Below are positions 43,967 to 59,609 of a stretch of 59,736 bases of DNA, one piece after another; the first letter of the stretch is position 1; every line of letters begins with the position of its first letter. A program made the position numbers and the translations under genes. This DNA is from Terrimonas sp. (GTDB taxonomy: Bacteria > Bacteroidota > Bacteroidia > Chitinophagales > Chitinophagaceae), in NCBI RefSeq assembly GCF_003075435.1, contig NZ_QCZJ01000033.1, forward strand, positions 1 to 59,736, read 5' to 3'. The notes beneath the pieces were generated by a model. The model ran no database searches. It was given only the letters and a program-made list of their open reading frames with translations, and was not told the DNA's origin.

Positions 43967-44731
43967 ATGCTGCCCTCTATATTGTTGATTGATGACGATG
44001 AAGAAATCCTGGATTTTCTGAAAGACGAGCTGCAGGAAAAATATTCCATTCATACTGCACTTAACGGAATAAGCGCCATGGAAATGCTAAAACATGAAAC
44101 CGTTCAGTTGATTGTAAGTGATGTGATGATGCCACAGATGGACGGCTTTGAACTATGCAGGTTAATAAAAACCAATATTGATCATTGCCATATACCTGTA
44201 ATATTACTAACGGCAAGAAATACACTTCAATCAAAAATTGAGGGATTGGAAATTGGCGCTGACGCATATATCGAAAAGCCTTTTTCACCTGCTCATCTCC
44301 AGGCACAGATTGCCAGCCTGCTCAATAACCGCAGCAGGGTAAAAGAATATTTCGCTAATTCTCCACTTGCGCATATCAACAGTATAGCGCACTCAAAATC
44401 AGATGAAGCATTTCTTGAACAACTGCACAGCATTATTTTACAATACCTGGAAGACACTATGCTTGATGTAGAAAAGCTCGCAGCAGCCATGAATATGAGC
44501 CGCCCCACACTGTATAGAAAGATCAAAGGCATATCAAACCTTACGCCTCATGAATTGATCAATATAACCCGGCTTAAAAAGGCAGCGGAGCTACTGGCGG
44601 AAGGCAGGTACAGAATTGCGGAAATAGCTGACATGGCAGGTTTTCAGTCGCAAAATAATTTTGGGAGAAATTTTTTGAAACAATTTGGCATGACGCCTAC
44701 GCAGTATATACATATGAAACAGGCAGAATAA
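43967..44731 (+). CDS. Response regulator with AraC-type DNA-binding domain
   Basis: 254 residues. The receiver domain is at 1-125, with the acidic pocket DDDEE (9-13), phospho-acceptor D52 in LIVSDVMMPQMDG, conserved Thr in LLTARN and Lys in IEKPFSP. The AraC HTH is at ~150-252: LDVEKLAAAMNMSRPTLYRKIKGISNLTP and RIAEIADMAGFQSQNNFGRNFLKQFGMTPTQYI. Together with the kinase directly upstream it makes a complete but unfused version of a Bacteroidota hybrid two-component system. It is expected to switch on the divergent SusC locus. Confidence 0.95.
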   Translation: MLPSILLIDDDEEILDFLKDELQEKYSIHTALNGISAMEMLKHETVQLIVSDVMMPQMDGFELCRLIKTNIDHCHIPVILLTARNTLQSKIEGLEIGADAYIEKPFSPAHLQAQIASLLNNRSRVKEYFANSPLAHINSIAHSKSDEAFLEQLHSIILQYLEDTMLDVEKLAAAMNMSRPTLYRKIKGISNLTPHELINITRLKKAAELLAEGRYRIAEIADMAGFQSQNNFGRNFLKQFGMTPTQYIHMKQAE

Positions 44732-50394: not shown

Positions 50395-50423
50395 AAAAAA
50401 GGCGGCACTTTGATAGTGCCACC
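50395..50423 (-). terminator. Intrinsic terminator of the minus-strand crRNA-like RNA
   Basis: Read on the minus strand, GGTGGCACT and AGTGCCGCC form a 9-bp stem (one G-T pair) with loop ATCAA, followed by TTTTTT. On the plus strand no T-run follows, so it is not the terminator of mutL. It shows that a minus-strand transcript ends here. Confidence 0.85.
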
Positions 50424-50475
50424 AATAAAAGCAATTCACAACACTTAAACAACATATTTAGATTGTAACACGTGT
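50395..50475 (-). ncRNA. Candidate crRNA-like regulatory RNA (solo partial repeat plus 12-nt self-matching seed)
   Basis: On the minus strand, 50442-50427 reads GTTGTGAATTGCTTTT. The first 15 bases equal the 5' end of the CRISPR repeat as transcribed, the part that pairs with the tracrRNA anti-repeat. The rest of the repeat is missing and a strong terminator follows after a few bases. In guide position directly before it stands TGTTGTTTAAGT (50454-50443), identical to plus-strand DNA at 50607-50618 upstream of cas9; beyond these 12 bases the match is poor. The 5' end is unknown and no consensus promoter was found. By analogy with scaRNA and tracr-L, it could direct Cas9 to bind without cutting and repress cas9. 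This role is inferred. Confidence 0.6.
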
Positions 50476-50606
50476 ATAAGAGGAGCAGTCAATATATAAT
50501 CCTTGGGGGAAATTATAGGCAAGGCTTGGAGACTTGCCCTAAAAATTTGCAACTTTTTATCTACTGCCTTCACAATAATATGAAAAAATTAATACAAAAC
50601 GAATTT

Positions 50607-50618
50607 TGTTGTTTAAGT
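50607..50618 (+). promoter_or_regulatory. Predicted target of the crRNA-like guide, in the cas9 upstream region
   Basis: TGTTGTTTAAGT matches the 12 seed bases of the crRNA-like RNA, ending exactly at its guide/repeat boundary. The 3' flank on this strand, in PAM position, is ATGTCCTC. The site lies about 125 bp before the cas9 ATG. The best -7-like element is TTATTTTG at 50636-50643 (one mismatch to TAnnTTTG), and the 12-nt site would fall where its -33 element belongs. Confidence 0.5.
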
Positions 50619-50647: not shown

Positions 50648-50715
50648 TAAAAAAGCTCCACCGAGGCAGAGCTAAGAATTTCTTCGGCTTATAGCCTTAT
50701 TGTGAATTGTCTTTC
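50648..50715 (-). ncRNA. tracrRNA
   Basis: The minus strand from 50715 reads GAAAGACAATTCACAAT, an anti-repeat that pairs with the crRNA 5' repeat end GTTGTGAATTGCTTTC over 16 positions with one bulged A and one G-U. A nexus hairpin GGCT-ATA-AGCC follows, then a small AAGAA/TTCTT stem, then the terminator AGCTC...GAGCT (50654-50673) with a TTTTTT tail. This is the standard order of anti-repeat, nexus and terminator. An upstream promoter fits a start at about 50714-50716, so the RNA would begin directly with the anti-repeat and be about 68 nt long. It is transcribed against the cas9 leader. Confidence 0.88.
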
Positions 50716-50720
50716 GACTG

Positions 50721-50752
50721 CAAATCTAAAATAAGTATAGATATGAGCAAAA
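50721..50752 (-). promoter_or_regulatory. tracrRNA promoter overlapping the cas9 start codon
   Basis: On the minus strand, TTTTG (50752-50748), a 19-bp spacer and TAGATTTG (50728-50721) match the Bacteroidota -33 TTTG and -7 TAnnTTTG elements with correct spacing. The -33 element lies inside codons 2-4 of cas9, so tracrRNA and cas9 transcription compete for the same DNA. Confidence 0.75.
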
Positions 50753-53700
50753 TTTTAGGATTGGATTTAGGTACAAATAGTGTTGGATGGTCTATCAGAA
50801 ATACACAATTACCTGATAATCAGATAGAAAAAGCTGGTGTAATAACCTACACCAAAGGTGTTGGCAACAGCAAAACCGGAGAATACTCCTATGCTGCGGA
50901 ACGCACCAAAAAGCGTTCAACCCGTCGCTTGTACCAATCAAGAAAATACAGGCTATGGGCAACGCTTGATGTTTTAATTAAGGAAGGCTATTGCCCGTTG
51001 TCATTAGACGGTTTAAATAAATGGAGACATTACTCAAAAGAAGAAGCAAGAAAAAATAAAAATGCCGGAAGGGTTTATCCCAAAGATCAAATTCTTTTTG
51101 AGCAATGGATAAAGATGGATTTTGATGGCGATGGAATTCCCAACTACAAAAGTCCTTATCAATTAAGGAGAAATTTAGTGGAAGAGAAATTTGATTTTTC
51201 GAAAGAAGCAAACCGATATAGATTAGGCAGGGCATTATATCACATTGCCCAACGAAGAGGGTTTAAAAGTAGCCGAAAAGGTAGTGATGATGTAAAAGAA
51301 AATACCGAAGGTGCAGATATTGACTTGCAGTATTCTGAAAAGAAAAAAAATAAAGAACTAGTAACTCAGTTTCAAAAATATCCACAAGCAAAAACCATCG
51401 GTTCGTTGTTTGCATATTTGGAAGATGATGGAGTGCGTATTCGGGAAAATATGGCGCAATATGCAATTCGTGAAAATTTTAAAGAGGAAATCAACGAAAT
51501 TTTCAAGTTTCAAAACATTTCTTTAGATAGTGATTTATATAAAGGATTGGTTGAAACCGGCAAAAACAAAAATGACGGTGCTATTTTTTATAAACGTCCA
51601 TTGCGCTCACAAAAAGGATTGATTGGGCTTTGTACACTGGAACAGGAAACACGTATAGACCCAAAAACAAATAAATCTTTTCAGGTTGGTAAATATCGGG
51701 CGCCGATAAGTCACCCAAGTTTTGAATTGTTCAGAGCGTGGCAGTTTTTAAACAATATAAAATTCAAAGAAGAAAATAATAAAAATTCGATTTGGAAACC
51801 GATTTCATTGGAATTAAAAGTAGAAATACTCAATGAAAAGTTTTTCAGAAAATCTAAAGCCTATTTTCCGTTTTCTGAAATTGCCGACTTCATAAAAAAG
51901 AAGGGTTATAAGTGGATTTTAAATTACAAATCAAAACAAACGGTTACAGCCTGTCCGGTTTCTGCAAGGTTGAAGGATATTTTTGGCGATGATTACCTGG
52001 ATATAAAAATAGAAAAAGTACCATCACCCAAAGAAAATAAAAGCCATTACGACATTTATGATATTTGGCATGTTCTGTTTTCGTTTGAAGACCAGGAGTT
52101 TGTTTCAGCGTTTGCATTAGAGAAATTAAAATTAGATGAAGAAAAGACCAAGCAATTCGTATATGCATGGAACGCACTGCCTGTTGGCTATGGAATGCTG
52201 AGCATTAATGCTATTGATAAAATTAATCGCTTTTTGTTTAAAGGATTGCAATACACCGAATCGGTATTGCTTGCTAACTTACCTTCACTAGTTGGTGAAG
52301 AATTGTGGAGTAAAAGTGAAGCTTTATTTATACAAAACATTGGTGATGTCATTAAAGAAAATCGGGACGAAAAACACATTATTCAAATCATCAATGGCCT
52401 TGTTGCCAAATACAAAAATTTGGATCAGAAATTTGGCTTCAAAAATGAAGGCTATATACTTGATGAAAGCGATGTACAAGACATAACAGATGCTATTATT
52501 GACCATTATGGAGAAAGCGTTTGGCTATCCAAAACAAAAGAAGAAGCTGATATGACTTTTTTAACCGTAAAAGATTGTTATCAGTCATTTTTCAAAACAA
52601 AGGAATTGGAGCGTGTGGATATTGATGGAGAAAGATATTTTTTGATTACTTCAAATGGCAAAAATTATTACAAAGCGGACTCCGGCTTCTACAAACAACC
52701 TAAGTTAAAAGACACCTTAGCTGAATATGCTTCAAAGACCTTAAAAATTGACGTTTTAAAACTAAAAAAGATTTATCATCATTCCGACATTAGCATTTAT
52801 CCACCTGCAATGCCCGATGAAAATGGTGAGGTAAAAATGGGTAGCCCCAAAACGGGTTCGTTCAAGAACCCAATGGCAATGCGTACTTTGCAGGAACTGA
52901 AAAAATTATTGAACTACCTGATTGAAACCAACCAAATAGATTCAGATACAAGAGTAGTGGTTGAAGTTGCCAGACAATTAAGCGATTCAAATAAGCGTTG
53001 GGCTATCGAGGCTTGGCAGCGGCAAAGAGAAGCAGAAAATATGGAGTTTGCAGCGGCGATAGATGAATTAGTGAAGCAGGAAAAAGTGAGCGCCGATAGC
53101 AAAAAAGAAGCTGATATTGATAAAATGCGGCTTTGGTACGAACAGAACAAAGAAGAATCCGTACCGGAAATTTCAGAGGTAAAAAAGGAAATTAAAGGCA
53201 TCCGATGGAATGAAAACAAAAAACAATCATACAAAGATATTACTGCAAAGAAAACAGATATTGAAAAATATCGCTTGTGGCGTGAACAAAAATGTATCTG
53301 CATTTATACCGGAAAAATTATCAGTATAAGCGATTTGTTTAACACCAACGTAATTGACTTTGAGCATACCTTACCTCGCAGCAAGTCTTTTGATAATTCG
53401 TTAGCGAATAAAACAGTTGCATTTATGCAGTTCAACCGAACGGTTAAGAAGAATAAAATCCCATCACAGTTGCCTGAAAAGGACTATGAATTAGTTTTAG
53501 AAAATATAAAACCCTGGGAAGAAAAAATTGAACGCATAAAACAACAAATAGATTTCTGGCAAACCAAATCGAAAAAGGCAGCAGACAAACAATGGAAAGA
53601 TGAAGCTATCAGGCAAAAGCATCTTTGGAAGATGGAACTGGAATATTGGAGCAGTAAAGTTGAACGATTTAAAGTACAGGAAATCACTTCCGGCTTTAAA

Positions 53701-55077
53701 AACAGTCAATTAGTAGATACGCAATTAATCTCAAAATATGCTTTACACTATCTTAAAACTTATTTCGAAAAAGTGGATGTGCAAAAAGGAGAAGTAACTG
53801 CCATTTTTAGAAAAATTTATGCTATTCAACCACAGAATTTCGATGGGAAAAAAGACAGGAACAAACATTCACATCATGCAAAAGATGCAACCGTTTTGAC
53901 CTTAATTCCGCAAGCAGCCAAGCGGGAAGAAATGCTGAAAGCGTATTTTGAAGATTTGGAACAAGGCAGAAACTTCCAAACATTAAAACCATTTCCTGCA
54001 TTCAATGTCAGTTCTATTTTTGAAATTGATGATAATGTACTTATTAATAGCCTGAACAATATTCAGTTCCTTTCCAGGGCAAAAAGAGTGATTCGCAAAA
54101 GAGGAAAGATTCAATTTATAGAAGACACCGATAAGGTGAAAATAGCAACCGGCGATAGCATCCGTGGGCAATTGCATCAGGAAACATTCTACGGGGCAAT
54201 GAAACCTGCCAAACTTGACGAAAATGGAAGAATGCAAAAAGATGAAAACGGTAATTTTATGCAGGAAGACAAGTTGAAGTTTACCATCCGTGTACCATTT
54301 CAATACAAATCGAAACCTGATGCACCTGGGTTTAAAACTTGGGAAGAAATCGAAAAACAAGTTGTTGATAATGGATTGAAAGCCCAAATAAAAAAGCAAA
54401 TTGATAAAGCTGGAGGTTTGAAAGAAGCCTTTGAAGCAGGTATTCATTTATTAGATAAAAACGGTGATCCTCATGGTAGCAAAATTCGCCATATCCGTGT
54501 GTGGGCAAGCGTTTCCGAACCATTGCAAATCAAGAAGCAAACCTATCTTTCTTCAAAAGTATACAAGCAACATTATTACGCTGCAAATGCAACCAACAGT
54601 TATTTTGCATTGTATCAGGATAAAGAAAAAACGAAAAAAGATTTTGATTTCAGAAACCTAATGGAGGTAGCACAGGCACTTTCGGTAGAGAATATTGAAA
54701 CCGAGAATGATTTATTTACGCCATTTATTTCCATCAAGAAAGGAAAAACAGAGAAGCAATTAGATTTAAAATACATTTTAACACCTGGGGCAAGGGTAAT
54801 TTTTGTAAAAGACGAAGAAATAAGGGAAGATCTAAGCCATGCTGATATTTTTAATCGACTTTATGTATATACTAATTTTGAAAAGGACGGAAGATTGAAT
54901 TTTAAATATCACTTAGAAGCAAGAAATAAAATAGAGGAAAAGTATTTAGAATCAGAAATTGATTGGGAAAATCCAAAACCAACATTGAGGTTTAGCTATA
55001 GCAAATATGATTTTTTAGTTGAAGGTGAAGAATATGATTTCGTGGTTAATATGGACGGTACAATTCAATGGAAATAG
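50743..55077 (+). CDS. CRISPR-associated endonuclease Cas9, type II-C
   Basis: 1,444 residues from the ATG at 50743, giving MSKILGLDLGTNSVGW; a TTG 12 codons upstream falls in the tracrRNA anti-repeat and is rejected. RuvC-I has D8. The Arg-rich bridge helix (ERTKKRSTRRLYQSRKYRLW) follows, then a long REC lobe. RuvC-II has E741 in VVVEVARQLS. The HNH domain has EHTLPRS with H875 and FDNSLANKTV with the metal-site Asn. RuvC-III reads HSHHAKDA, with H1044/H1045 and D1048. All catalytic residues are present. It is on the large side for II-C, as is usual in Bacteroidota. The gene is markedly AT-rich compared with mutL and cas1. It uses crRNA plus tracrRNA to cleave foreign DNA. Confidence 0.97.
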   Translation: MSKILGLDLGTNSVGWSIRNTQLPDNQIEKAGVITYTKGVGNSKTGEYSYAAERTKKRSTRRLYQSRKYRLWATLDVLIKEGYCPLSLDGLNKWRHYSKEEARKNKNAGRVYPKDQILFEQWIKMDFDGDGIPNYKSPYQLRRNLVEEKFDFSKEANRYRLGRALYHIAQRRGFKSSRKGSDDVKENTEGADIDLQYSEKKKNKELVTQFQKYPQAKTIGSLFAYLEDDGVRIRENMAQYAIRENFKEEINEIFKFQNISLDSDLYKGLVETGKNKNDGAIFYKRPLRSQKGLIGLCTLEQETRIDPKTNKSFQVGKYRAPISHPSFELFRAWQFLNNIKFKEENNKNSIWKPISLELKVEILNEKFFRKSKAYFPFSEIADFIKKKGYKWILNYKSKQTVTACPVSARLKDIFGDDYLDIKIEKVPSPKENKSHYDIYDIWHVLFSFEDQEFVSAFALEKLKLDEEKTKQFVYAWNALPVGYGMLSINAIDKINRFLFKGLQYTESVLLANLPSLVGEELWSKSEALFIQNIGDVIKENRDEKHIIQIINGLVAKYKNLDQKFGFKNEGYILDESDVQDITDAIIDHYGESVWLSKTKEEADMTFLTVKDCYQSFFKTKELERVDIDGERYFLITSNGKNYYKADSGFYKQPKLKDTLAEYASKTLKIDVLKLKKIYHHSDISIYPPAMPDENGEVKMGSPKTGSFKNPMAMRTLQELKKLLNYLIETNQIDSDTRVVVEVARQLSDSNKRWAIEAWQRQREAENMEFAAAIDELVKQEKVSADSKKEADIDKMRLWYEQNKEESVPEISEVKKEIKGIRWNENKKQSYKDITAKKTDIEKYRLWREQKCICIYTGKIISISDLFNTNVIDFEHTLPRSKSFDNSLANKTVAFMQFNRTVKKNKIPSQLPEKDYELVLENIKPWEEKIERIKQQIDFWQTKSKKAADKQWKDEAIRQKHLWKMELEYWSSKVERFKVQEITSGFKNSQLVDTQLISKYALHYLKTYFEKVDVQKGEVTAIFRKIYAIQPQNFDGKKDRNKHSHHAKDATVLTLIPQAAKREEMLKAYFEDLEQGRNFQTLKPFPAFNVSSIFEIDDNVLINSLNNIQFLSRAKRVIRKRGKIQFIEDTDKVKIATGDSIRGQLHQETFYGAMKPAKLDENGRMQKDENGNFMQEDKLKFTIRVPFQYKSKPDAPGFKTWEEIEKQVVDNGLKAQIKKQIDKAGGLKEAFEAGIHLLDKNGDPHGSKIRHIRVWASVSEPLQIKKQTYLSSKVYKQHYYAANATNSYFALYQDKEKTKKDFDFRNLMEVAQALSVENIETENDLFTPFISIKKGKTEKQLDLKYILTPGARVIFVKDEEIREDLSHADIFNRLYVYTNFEKDGRLNFKYHLEARNKIEEKYLESEIDWENPKPTLRFSYSKYDFLVEGEEYDFVVNMDGTIQWK

Positions 55078-55078
55078 T

Positions 55079-55230
55079 ATGATCAAATGAACTCTTTACT
55101 TCACCAATCCTGCTTTTCTTAAAACCAATAACAATCCGTGATTATTGAGATGTAGGACAGCGGCGAAACCAAATCGGCGCTGACTGAAGATATAGGATTA
55201 TTGATTGGTCGCATAGGCAATATATCACCA
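55079..55230 (+). pseudogene. Decayed 5' fragment of a second cas1
   Basis: It starts with ATG one base after the cas9 stop and follows the first ~50 codons of the intact cas1 at 56069: MIK-stop-TLYFTNPAFLKT against MIKRTLYFGNPAYLKT, and then ATTGAGATG-TAGGACAG against ATTGAGATGCAGGACAG. It has a stop in place of R4, frame-shifting indels and a further TAG. Identity is roughly 70-90% along its length. Many differences are at third codon positions, which indicates divergence as a working gene before decay, not a recent duplication. The ancestral order was probably cas9 followed at once by this cas1. Confidence 0.85.
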
Positions 55231-55269: not shown

Positions 55270-55470
55270 ATGGCTAAATCTAAAAGCTCATACTCTAACT
55301 ATAGAATCAAACAATTTTCATCTTTTGAAGAAATGGATGAGGACAAAGCCAAACAAATGGCAGTAATTCTCCCAGTTGAGCATCTAAAAAACACTACGAA
55401 ACTTATAAAAAATATATATGACGAAAAGCTTAAACAACCCATGAGCAAGCGAATAAAATTTAAGAAATAA
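55270..55470 (+). CDS. Small protein paired with a nucleotidyltransferase
   Basis: 66 residues, charged and helical, with SSFEEMDEDKAKQMAVILPVEHLKNTTKLIKNIYDEKL, a pattern seen in small Bacteroidota proteins encoded just before nucleotidyltransferases. Its stop overlaps the next start by one base (TAATG), so the two are a unit. It could be the antitoxin or partner of a toxin-antitoxin-like pair. It lies between the cas1 remnant and the intact cas1. Function is not known. Confidence 0.7.
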   Translation: MAKSKSSYSNYRIKQFSSFEEMDEDKAKQMAVILPVEHLKNTTKLIKNIYDEKLKQPMSKRIKFKK

Positions 55471-55949
55471 TGAATATTCTCATAGAAGAACACCAGGAAT
55501 TATTATTATGTTTAGCCAAACATAGGGTTGATTTTATGGTGGTAGGTGGCTATGCTGTCATATATTATGGTTATGAACGAATTACAGGAGATCTGGATAT
55601 TTGGCTGAAATCGAGCAATGCCAATAAAGAAAGATTAGCAAATGCGTTAATTGATTTTGGCATAGAGAAAACAGATATAGCATCACTCCATGGTATGGAT
55701 TTCAACAACCCATTATCTGTATTCTGCATTGGAGAAAAGCCACGCAGAACTGATTTTCATACTTTAATCGACAACCTAAAGTTTGAGGAAATAATAAACT
55801 ATGTAAATTATTTTCCGTTGAAGAATAAAAACATTCCTGTAATACACTATAATCATTTGATCCTGTCAAAGCTAACCACCGGCAGAATGAAAGACAAAGC
55901 TGATATAGAAGAGCTGGAAAGAATCAATAAATACAGAAAAAAACAATAA
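55470..55949 (+). CDS. MNT/AbiEii-like nucleotidyltransferase
   Basis: 159 residues. The nucleotidyltransferase signature is VVGGYAVIYYGYERITGDLDIWL (about 24-46): the GG motif followed by DLD, whose two Asp bind metal. A third acidic position is likely in RRTDFHTL (about 91-98). The size and motif fit minimal nucleotidyltransferases of toxin-antitoxin or abortive-infection pairs (MNT, AbiEii, DUF6036-type). With the 66-aa gene it forms a coupled two-gene module within the cas operon. Such a module may be a passenger, or may add an abortive defence layer; neither can be decided here. Confidence 0.8.
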   Translation: MNILIEEHQELLLCLAKHRVDFMVVGGYAVIYYGYERITGDLDIWLKSSNANKERLANALIDFGIEKTDIASLHGMDFNNPLSVFCIGEKPRRTDFHTLIDNLKFEEIINYVNYFPLKNKNIPVIHYNHLILSKLTTGRMKDKADIEELERINKYRKKQ

Positions 55950-56068: not shown

Positions 56069-57452
<1,384 letters not shown>

Positions 57453-57625: not shown

Positions 57626-59593
57626 GTTGTAAAAGAACTAAGCTACTTAATAATTTGAAAGCAATTCACAACGATTGGTAAATGGCATAATCCCAGCTCA
57701 CAGTTGTAAAAGAACTAAGCTACTTAATAATTTGAAAGCAATTCACAACGGTACGCCTTTTACATTAACAGATCCTAAGTTGTAAAAGAACTAAGCTACT
57801 TAATAATTTGAAAGCAATTCACAACAAGTAGGATATTGCATTCTTTACTGATTGAGTTGTAAAAGAACTAAGCTACTTAATAATTTGAAAGCAATTCACA
57901 ACGGTACGCGCTTATATAAAACCTAAACGCAGTTGTAAAAGAACTAAGCTACTTAATAATTTGAAAGCAATTCACAACAGTGAGTATGACTTAACGGCAA
58001 CCGGCGGCGTTGTAAAAGAACTAAGCTACTTAATAATTTGAAAGCAATTCACAACTATGATGATGAAAACCTGAATGAAACAGGGTTGTAAAAGAACTAA
58101 GCTACTTAATAATTTGAAAGCAATTCACAACTGGATGATAGTGGCTCTTACTACTTACTTGGTTGTAAAAGAACTAAGCTACTTAATAATTTGAAAGCAA
58201 TTCACAACAGCTATCCCTAGCCATGCATTACTATTTCAGTTGTAAAAGAACTAAGCTACTTAATAATTTGAAAGCAATTCACAACAACGTAGATAATATG
58301 TTTGACATTAAAAAGGTTGTAAAAGAACTAAGCTACTTAATAATTTGAAAGCAATTCACAACCTGTTATTGTATGAATCGTTAATGTCAGGGGTTGTAAA
58401 AGAACTAAGCTACTTAATAATTTGAAAGCAATTCACAACTCTTTAGCTTTCATCTTTAAAAGAAAAAATGTTGTAAAAGAACTAAGCTACTTAATAATTT
58501 GAAAGCAATTCACAACTCATAGGTTAGCATTGTTAAAACTTGTTGTGTTGTAAAAGAACTAAGCTACTTAATAATTTGAAAGCAATTCACAACTTCACGG
58601 TGACGATGCGGCAACGCCAACCCCGTTGTAAAAGAACTAAGCTACTTAATAATTTGAAAGCAATTCACAACCCCCCTGTTGTTGACTTGGAGCAAACCGA
58701 AGTTGTAAAAGAACTAAGCTACTTAATAATTTGAAAGCAATTCACAACAACACCGAAGCCCGCGTAATGGCTTTCCTTGTTGTAAAAGAACTAAGCTACT
58801 TAATAATTTGAAAGCAATTCACAACCATTACCTGTTGAACGGTCGCGAAGCAACGGTTGTAAAAGAACTAAGCTACTTAATAATTTGAAAGCAATTCACA
58901 ACCAGATTCAAGACGGGTTAAAGCGTCGATTTGTTGTAAAAGAACTAAGCTACTTAATAATTTGAAAGCAATTCACAACCCTAGTGATTCAAGATACATT
59001 AACGCGTCGGTTGTAAAAGAACTAAGCTACTTAATAATTTGAAAGCAATTCACAACAAATTGCCTGATGGATGGTTATGGGCTAAAGTTGTAAAAGAACT
59101 AAGCTACTTAATAATTTGAAAGCAATTCACAACATGGCAGCTGGGAAGCTGCTGAACATGCGGTTGTAAAAGAACTAAGCTACTTAATAATTTGAAAGCA
59201 ATTCACAACTCCTACGGCTTACAGTAGTGCATCATATAGTTGTAAAAGAACTAAGCTACTTAATAATTTGAAAGCAATTCACAACTTGTTTCAATTGGGT
59301 TTTACAAAAACATCAGTTGTAAAAGAACTAAGCTACTTAATAATTTGAAAGCAATTCACAACGTTAACAGGATAGCAAGTCAGGCGGTCGAGGTTGTAAA
59401 AGAACTAAGCTACTTAATAATTTGAAAGCAATTCACAACTATACCCGCATGAATCGTAAGCGAGATGCCGTTGTAAAAGAACTAAGCTACTTAATAATTT
59501 GAAAGCAATTCACAACTAATGGGCAAGGGTAAGATGACGATAGAATGTTGTAAAAGAACTAAGCTACTTAATAATTTGAAAGCAATTCACAAC
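57626..59593 (-). CRISPR. Type II-C CRISPR array, 26 repeats and 25 spacers
   Basis: A 47-bp repeat occurs 26 times without a visible change. On the plus strand it runs from GTTGTAAAAGAACTAAGC to AAAGCAATTCACAAC. Spacers are 30 bp, except five of 29 (numbers 2, 4, 6, 20, 21 from the left) and one of 31 (number 13). The tracrRNA anti-repeat pairs with GTTGTGAATTGCTTTC, so crRNAs are made from the minus strand, right to left, and the leader end should be at the right. With no degenerate end repeat, repeat decay cannot confirm polarity. Spacers 2 and 4 share their first seven plus-strand bases, GGTACGC. No spacer was found to match the rest of the window by eye. Confidence 0.98.
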
Positions 59594-59609
59594 TTCCGCT
59601 TCTCAGAGT

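What the first reader, a model, noticed from the sequence alone, without database searches (positions are those of the whole stretch)
50395..50618. A crRNA-like RNA with a 12-nt seed matching the cas9 upstream region: candidate self-repressing guide in a II-C system
Seen: on the minus strand a solitary repeat piece (50442-50427) keeps only the bases that pair with the tracrRNA and is followed at once by an intrinsic terminator. The 12 bases in seed position (50454-50443) equal plus-strand DNA at 50607-50618, and the identity stops exactly at the guide/repeat junction. Known: Francisella scaRNA and S. pyogenes tracr-L use about 11-15 matching bases so that Cas9 binds but does not cut, repressing transcription; repeat-like CreR RNAs repress cas genes in other CRISPR types. 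Inference: this RNA with tracrRNA and Cas9 occupies the cas9 promoter region and sets Cas9 levels. The guide has the same sense as cas9 mRNA, so simple antisense pairing with that mRNA is excluded.
Basis: partly seen in the sequence, partly recalled or inferred. Interest (0 to 1): 0.93.

Follow-up and report, generated by a model that had tools for sequence, protein, structure and literature searches.

The report
Cas9 guide RNA aimed at cas9
Next to a bacterial CRISPR-Cas9 gene lies what looks like a tiny guide RNA whose short guide matches DNA just ahead of cas9 itself, so Cas9 probably parks there and limits its own production; related genomes show the same design with different, matching letters.

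Summary
Minus strand 50454-50395 reads as a 12-nt guide, a 16-nt repeat piece able to pair with the local tracrRNA, and an intrinsic terminator. In the whole 6.18-Mb genome the 12-mer occurs only as this guide and at 50607-50618 upstream of cas9; this is the only exact repeat core outside the arrays. Among 68 cas9 loci examined, six exact repeat cores lie on the tracrRNA strand upstream of cas9. In five of them (window, L037, L045, L133, L134) the last 10-12 guide bases recur on the plus strand 29-136 bp before the cas9 start, with different sequences. Two same-genus loci with 81%-identical Cas9s differ by one seed base, and guide and target differ together. Two carriers have the repeat directly before the tracrRNA, like S. 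pyogenes tracr-L; three have a separate, scaRNA-like unit. Best reading: a guide too short for cutting parks Cas9-tracrRNA upstream of cas9 and limits its transcription. Not shown: transcription, PAM, promoter position, repression. The window has no consensus promoter for the RNA or for cas9. New variant of a known kind.

The parts
50443..50454 (-). guide (seed) TGTTGTTTAAGT of the crRNA-like RNA
50427..50442 (-). solitary repeat piece GTTGTGAATTGCTTTT; 15 of 16 bases as in the array repeat; pairs with the anti-repeat of the tracrRNA
50395..50423 (-). intrinsic terminator: hairpin 50423-50401 and T6
50460..50492 (-). weak candidate promoter: TTG 50492-50490, 22 nt, TACAATCT; far from the Bacteroidota consensus
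   Evidence: read; not found by the consensus scans
50607..50618 (+). target: 12-mer identical to the guide, 125-136 bp before the cas9 start codon
50619..50626 (+). PAM side of the target, ATGTCCTC (PAM not established)
50649..50715 (-). tracrRNA: anti-repeat 50715-50699, nexus, terminator
50721..50728 (-). -7 box TAGATTTG of the tracrRNA promoter, with TTG 19 nt upstream
50743..55077 (+). cas9 (1444 aa; HNH and RuvC motifs present)
56069..56965 (+). cas1 (type II model TIGR03639)
56883..57452 (+). ORF holding cas2 (domain in its last 101 residues)
57626..59594 (-). CRISPR array, 26 repeats of 47 nt

Best explanation
The minus-strand RNA from about 50454 to 50395 is a crRNA-like guide with its own terminator. 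Its repeat piece pairs with tracrRNA and loads into Cas9. The about 12-nt guide is too short for cutting but long enough for stable binding, so Cas9 sits at 50607-50618, upstream of cas9, and lowers cas9 transcription: a negative feedback loop. Shown by sequence: the repeat piece, its pairing potential, the terminator, the genome-unique guide/target match, and the same arrangement with different matching letters in four other loci. Inferred: that the RNA is made, that it loads Cas9, that the PAM fits, that the site is in or near the cas9 promoter, and that binding represses. The guide equals the coding strand of cas9, so it pairs with the template strand; from recalled CRISPRi work that orientation blocks elongation poorly, so interference with initiation is the likelier mode.
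For: Genome-unique 12-nt match beside the only exact solitary repeat core of the genome. 6 exact repeat cores on the tracrRNA strand in 68 loci; 5 have a 10-12-nt match on the plus strand upstream of cas9: window 12, L045 11, L037 10, L133 10, L134 10. Shuffles of each locus's own region give the match in 3, 0, 23, 40 and 14 of 5000. At arbitrary junctions in 63 loci, matches of at least 10, 11 and 12 nt occur at 209, 107 and 60 of 44,552. Five one-mismatch cores on the tracrRNA strand in the 63 loci have no match of 8 nt or more. L133 and L134: seed ATATTAGTAT against AGATTAGTAT, each with its own matching target, in an intergenic stretch 141 of 168 identical. Pairing with tracrRNA: 16 pairs with one bulged base, -20.8 kcal/mol against a mean of -10.0 and a minimum of -18.5 for 200 shuffles. 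In L037 and L045 the repeat directly precedes the anti-repeat and folds with it.
Against: No expression data. No consensus promoter (score 8 or more) for the RNA or for cas9 in the window, while the tracrRNA promoter matches fully. PAM unknown; the sequences after the targets (ATGTCCTC, GACCCCTC, ACAACCAA, GAGTTTTT twice) share no motif across all five, though three of them share CC at positions 5-6. One exact core, in L134 near its tracrRNA, has no match. In L037 the identity runs one base into the repeat. One plus-strand one-mismatch core (L050) has a 10-nt match that I take as chance. The closest Cas9 relatives, L034 (79%) and L002 (70%), lack the element.
Confidence: 0.8

Rival explanations
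1. The two 12-mers are the arms of an inverted repeat that acts without Cas9, as an RNA stem in a long leader or as two operator half-sites for a regulator.
For: In all five carriers guide and target are in inverted orientation, and the paired change in L133/L134 would also keep an RNA stem.
Against: The arms abut the CRISPR repeat core in all five, with different sequences; an operator or stem has no reason to do so. The gap between the arms varies from about 60 to about 150 bp.
Confidence: 0.06
2. The RNA is a decoy: it occupies tracrRNA and Cas9 and dampens immunity without needing the DNA target.
For: The repeat piece can pair with tracrRNA; repeat mimicry that inhibits CRISPR is known for phage Racrs (PMC10651486, passages).
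Against: Does not explain the guide/target match in five loci or the paired seed change.
Confidence: 0.05
3. Dead remnant of an old array end with a chance 12-nt match.
For: Single, shortened repeat; no consensus promoter.
Against: 3 of 5000 shuffles; genome-unique; recurs in four other loci.
Confidence: 0.05
4. The guide binds upstream of cas9 but activates, or acts mainly on another nearby transcription unit (in L133/L134 the element lies between cas9 and a divergent DUF3800 gene).
For: Position of the element in L133/L134; direction of the effect is untested everywhere here.
Against: In all five the target is on the cas9 side, 29-136 bp before its start; the closest studied case, tracr-L, represses (PMC11417352, passages).
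Confidence: 0.04

Closest known systems
tracr-L, the natural single-guide RNA of Streptococcus pyogenes type II-A (Workman 2021; primary paper not held, described in PMC8616872 section 20, and in passages of PMC11417352 and PMC8730458)
   Same: A short (about 9-11 nt in those reviews) match beside the cas promoter directs active Cas9 to bind there; negative feedback on its own genes. L037 and L045 also share the anatomy: repeat-like piece directly upstream of the anti-repeat in one possible transcript.
   Different: Type II-C gene content in the window, not II-A; in the window, L133 and L134 guide and tracrRNA are separate units. PMC8616872 states that tracr-L is not found outside II-A.
scaRNA of Francisella novicida (type II-B) and scaRNA-like units predicted in II-A/II-C by Guzina 2018 (PMC6199352, abstract and passages)
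   Same: Solitary repeat piece outside the array, pairing with tracrRNA, own terminator, short guide match.
   Different: The Francisella scaRNA targets lipoprotein genes; here the match is upstream of cas9 itself. Guzina 2018 says that targets could not be recognised computationally.
scaRNA of Neisseria meningitidis (type II-C; PMC13431127, abstract and passages)
   Same: Cas9-associated small RNA in a II-C locus.
   Different: Reported to act after transcription on efeO mRNA with no detectable Cas9 part; no evidence found there for sequence-guided regulation of protein expression.
crRNA-like mini-arrays and CreR RNAs that repress cas genes in other types (Shmakov 2023 and others; not held, recalled)
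   Same: Repeat-derived RNA with partial match to cas promoters.
   Different: From recall mostly type I and V-A; here type II with a single 3' repeat piece and tracrRNA.

Membership tests
tracr-L (natural single-guide RNA) | guide, repeat-like piece and anti-repeat in one RNA | tested here: not met
   In the window the solitary repeat lies 250 bp beyond the tracrRNA terminator and has its own terminator. Met by sequence and fold in relatives L037 and L045.
tracr-L (natural single-guide RNA) | short guide match upstream of the cas genes | tested here: met
   12 nt at 50607-50618.
tracr-L (natural single-guide RNA) | functional PAM beside the match | tested here: inconclusive
   No usable spacer-protospacer match in two phage searches with both arrays and in eight viral scans covering 9 of 62 spacers.
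tracr-L (natural single-guide RNA) | Cas9-dependent repression of the cas promoter | not testable with these tools
   Needs expression data.
tracr-L (natural single-guide RNA) | subtype II-A locus | tested here: not met
   cas9-cas1-cas2 with no ORF of 100 aa or more between cas2 and the array on the plus strand; II-C by gene content.
scaRNA | repeat-homologous unit outside the array, complementary to tracrRNA | tested here: met
scaRNA | own terminator | tested here: met
scaRNA | own promoter / transcription start | tested here: inconclusive
   No consensus promoter; best scores 7 with ties.
scaRNA | Cas9- and tracrRNA-dependent control of an endogenous gene | not testable with these tools
   Needs experiments.
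cas-regulating mini-array (CRL/CreR, recalled) | two repeat-like sequences flanking a spacer | tested here: not met
   Only one repeat core on this strand in the intergenic region.

The most novel reading that the evidence does not exclude
Bacteroidota type II-C systems use short self-aimed guides as a Cas9 thermostat, built in two ways: a separate scaRNA-like guide (window, L133, L134) and a tracr-L-like single guide (L037, L045). It recurs in at least three diverged Cas9 groups, with seed and target changing together, so that Cas9 autorepression by guide is a recurrent solution in type II and not a streptococcal speciality.
Probability: 0.65. Interest if true: 0.85.

Novelty: new variant of a known kind. 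Interest (0 to 1): 0.76.

Why it matters
If true, Cas9 self-repression by short guides is not confined to II-A tracr-L. The II-C cases pair scaRNA anatomy with tracr-L logic, give scaRNA-like units in II-C a named target, and show seed-target pairs that change together, which makes the mechanism directly testable with small reporters. It also warns that solitary repeats near cas9 can be functional guides, not array debris.

Tried and rejected
PAM inference: blastn of both array stretches against phages gave repeat-driven and low-score hits; 17 and 1 further records were not listed and not looked at. Eight exact viral scans covered 9 of 62 spacers; three 17-18-nt hits had 22, 19 and 18 of 30 bases matching and are chance. 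A shared N4CC (window, L037, L045) was considered and dropped as a general PAM because L133/L134 have GAGTTTTT; their Cas9s are another lineage (29% identity to the window's), so a lineage-specific PAM stays open.

Sampling limits: the family search used E <= 1e-100 and the class and other family searches E <= 1e-60, so other Cas9 lineages were missed there; L133/L134 came from weak hits of the genus search. The carrier count is a lower bound. Of the family search's 24 non-window genomes, 20 were fetched at first; of the other four, G308 and G393 were scanned later and have no element, while G215 and G137 stretches lacked the cas9 start. Some loci had short upstream stretches (L038 66 bp) and L120 has a run of N, left out of the null. 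A search for the tracr-L layout in 395 genomes of the phylum found none. Rfam: no match in the window. An earlier fold left out G50715 and gave equal energies for array and solitary repeats; one search replaces it. My first null counted N runs; one search replaces it.

A second tracrRNA-like unit seen in several loci was first thought part of the story; L133-L135 show it as their only tracrRNA-like unit, so I read it as a leftover of another Cas9 lineage.

Full report
Observation. The window carries a II-C type locus by gene content: cas9 (50743-55077, +), cas1, cas2 and an array of 26 47-nt repeats read on the minus strand, with a tracrRNA on the minus strand whose promoter fits TTG-N19-TAGATTTG. 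On the same strand, 250 bp beyond the tracrRNA terminator, stands one solitary repeat piece (50442-50427) preceded by TGTTGTTTAAGT and followed by an intrinsic terminator. TGTTGTTTAAGT occurs again on the plus strand at 50607-50618. In the 6,175,289-base genome the 12-mer has exactly these two copies; the pattern read backwards has seven. The 15-nt repeat core has 64 exact copies: 63 in two array stretches, one here.

Chance. The 12-mer appears in 3 of 5000 dinucleotide shuffles of the -700..+60 region of cas9. At 44,552 arbitrary junctions of 63 cas9 upstream regions, a non-local match of at least 10, 11 or 12 nt in this orientation is found at 209, 107 and 60 (these counts include the real cases).

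Relatives. Cas9 loci were gathered with the window's Cas9 or a tracrRNA pattern: genus 5 of 12 genomes, family 25 of 394, order 10 of 396 by tracrRNA pattern, class 14 of 395, further genera and families 2 of 8, 1 of 4, 8 of 64, 3 of 87 and 17 of 190, and three named records. 68 loci with a readable cas9 start were scanned for the repeat core within 1.5 kb upstream, as far as the stretch allowed (39, 8, 16, 5). Three further stretches lacked the cas9 start.

Six exact cores lie on the tracrRNA strand. Five have a guide match on the plus strand upstream of cas9. Window: 12 nt, -136..-125, then ATGTCCTC. L037 (G220): 10 nt TTCAGTATAT, -53..-44, then GACCCCTC; the identity runs one base into the repeat. 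L045 (G360): 11 nt GTAGTGTGTAT, -39..-29, then ACAACCAA. L133 (G010): 10 nt ATATTAGTAT, -61..-52, then GAGTTTTT. L134 (G004): 10 nt AGATTAGTAT, -60..-51, then GAGTTTTT. The shuffles of each own region give 3, 23, 0, 40 and 14 of 5000. The sixth, in L134 near its tracrRNA, is half of a palindrome and has no match of 8 nt or more. Five one-mismatch cores on that strand in the 63 loci have none either; one plus-strand one-mismatch core (L050) has a 10-nt match.

Co-variation. G010 and G004 belong to the window's genus; their Cas9s are 81.1% identical to each other and about 29% to the window's. Their intergenic stretches agree at 141 of 168 aligned columns. The seeds differ at one base, and the targets differ at the same base in the same way. 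That is one paired change; it supports base pairing between the two elements. Across the five loci the seeds are otherwise unlike while each matches its own target.

Two anatomies. In L037 and L045 the repeat stands directly before the anti-repeat and the stretch folds into a repeat/anti-repeat hairpin like an artificial single guide; the short tracrRNA has a full consensus promoter whose TTG lies inside the repeat core, and L037 has a further exact -7 box (TAGCTTTG) that would give a guide of about 22-24 nt. This is the two-promoter layout described for tracr-L and tracr-S. In the window, L133 and L134 the guide is a separate unit. In L133 and L134 it lies between cas9 and a divergent DUF3800 gene and is framed by an inverted repeat TGTGGGGA/TCCCCACA.

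Pairing and activity. The solitary 16-nt piece pairs with the anti-repeat in 16 pairs with one bulged A: -20.8 kcal/mol, against -22.4 for the array repeat and a mean of -10.0, minimum -18.5, for 200 shuffles. Cas9 keeps its HNH and RuvC regions, so a short guide, not a dead nuclease, would be what prevents cutting (established for tracr-L and scaRNA; PMC8616872 and PMC8730458, passages).

Weak points. The consensus scan found no promoter with score 8 or more for the RNA or for cas9 in the window. By eye there is TTG-N22-TACAATCT upstream of the guide; TTG-to-guide distance (35 nt) is close to TTG-to-spacer distance in the array repeat (36 nt), and a TTG about 35 bp upstream of spacers is described as the promoter element of Flavobacterium II-C repeats (PMC10309648, passages). 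That is suggestive only. The PAM could not be inferred. The guide equals the cas9 coding strand in all five, so blocking initiation is likelier than blocking elongation (recalled CRISPRi rule).

Literature. Ten searches in a library of open papers showed no report of Cas9 autorepression by a guide in II-C; the primary tracr-L paper and Shmakov 2023 are not held, so this is not a statement about all print. PMC8616872 (section 20) says tracr-L is not found outside II-A. PMC6199352 (abstract, passages) predicted scaRNA-like units in II-C but could not assign targets. PMC13431127 (abstract, passages) reports a II-C scaRNA acting on mRNA.

Verdict. A guide RNA aimed at cas9's own upstream region is by far the best reading; that it represses is inferred from close precedents. 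It works like tracr-L; by anatomy the window unit is scaRNA-like; it is filed as a new variant of that kind, not as a member of either. The checking calls (90-97) raised the carriers from three to five and added the paired seed change; confidence is set with these included.

Noticed in passing
L034, L042, L045, L080, L082, L098, L118; also L133, L134, L135: A second kind of tracrRNA (AAGGATTATTCCGTTGTGAAAACA...) stands in 7 of the 63 first loci; in L133-L135 it is the only tracrRNA-like unit found. Loci holding both kinds may have had their cas9 replaced while the old tracrRNA stayed.
   Followed up: partly
L107 (Riemerella phage CRP19) and L129 (Riemerella phage RAP44), upstream of a dinD gene: Riemerella phages carry a mini-array (three repeats with two identical spacers, or one spacer with a shortened upstream repeat) of the same repeat family; it could be an RNA anti-CRISPR or a guide against rivals or the host. 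Two of the listed records were read.
   Followed up: partly
window 55139-55205 and 55470-55949: A 67-bp copy (87%) of the start of cas1 (56130-56196) lies between cas9 and a DUF6036/DUF2204 nucleotidyltransferase-like ORF, as if that gene came in with a partial duplication of cas1.
   Followed up: no
G000 contig C15:1-3100 (L128): 38 further repeats, probably the rest of the array cut by contig ends; 62 spacers in all. Both contig ends carry GTTGACCCA-type short repeats.
   Followed up: partly
L133 and L134, between the DUF3800 gene and cas9: The guide unit is framed by an inverted repeat TGTGGGGA/TCCCCACA followed by T-rich DNA, so guide and repeat lie in the loop of a possible terminator hairpin.
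   Followed up: partly
L134:2320-2345: A palindromic double repeat core GTTGTGAATTGctttCAATTCACAAC about 150 nt upstream of the tracrRNA; a diverged copy is in L133.
   Followed up: no
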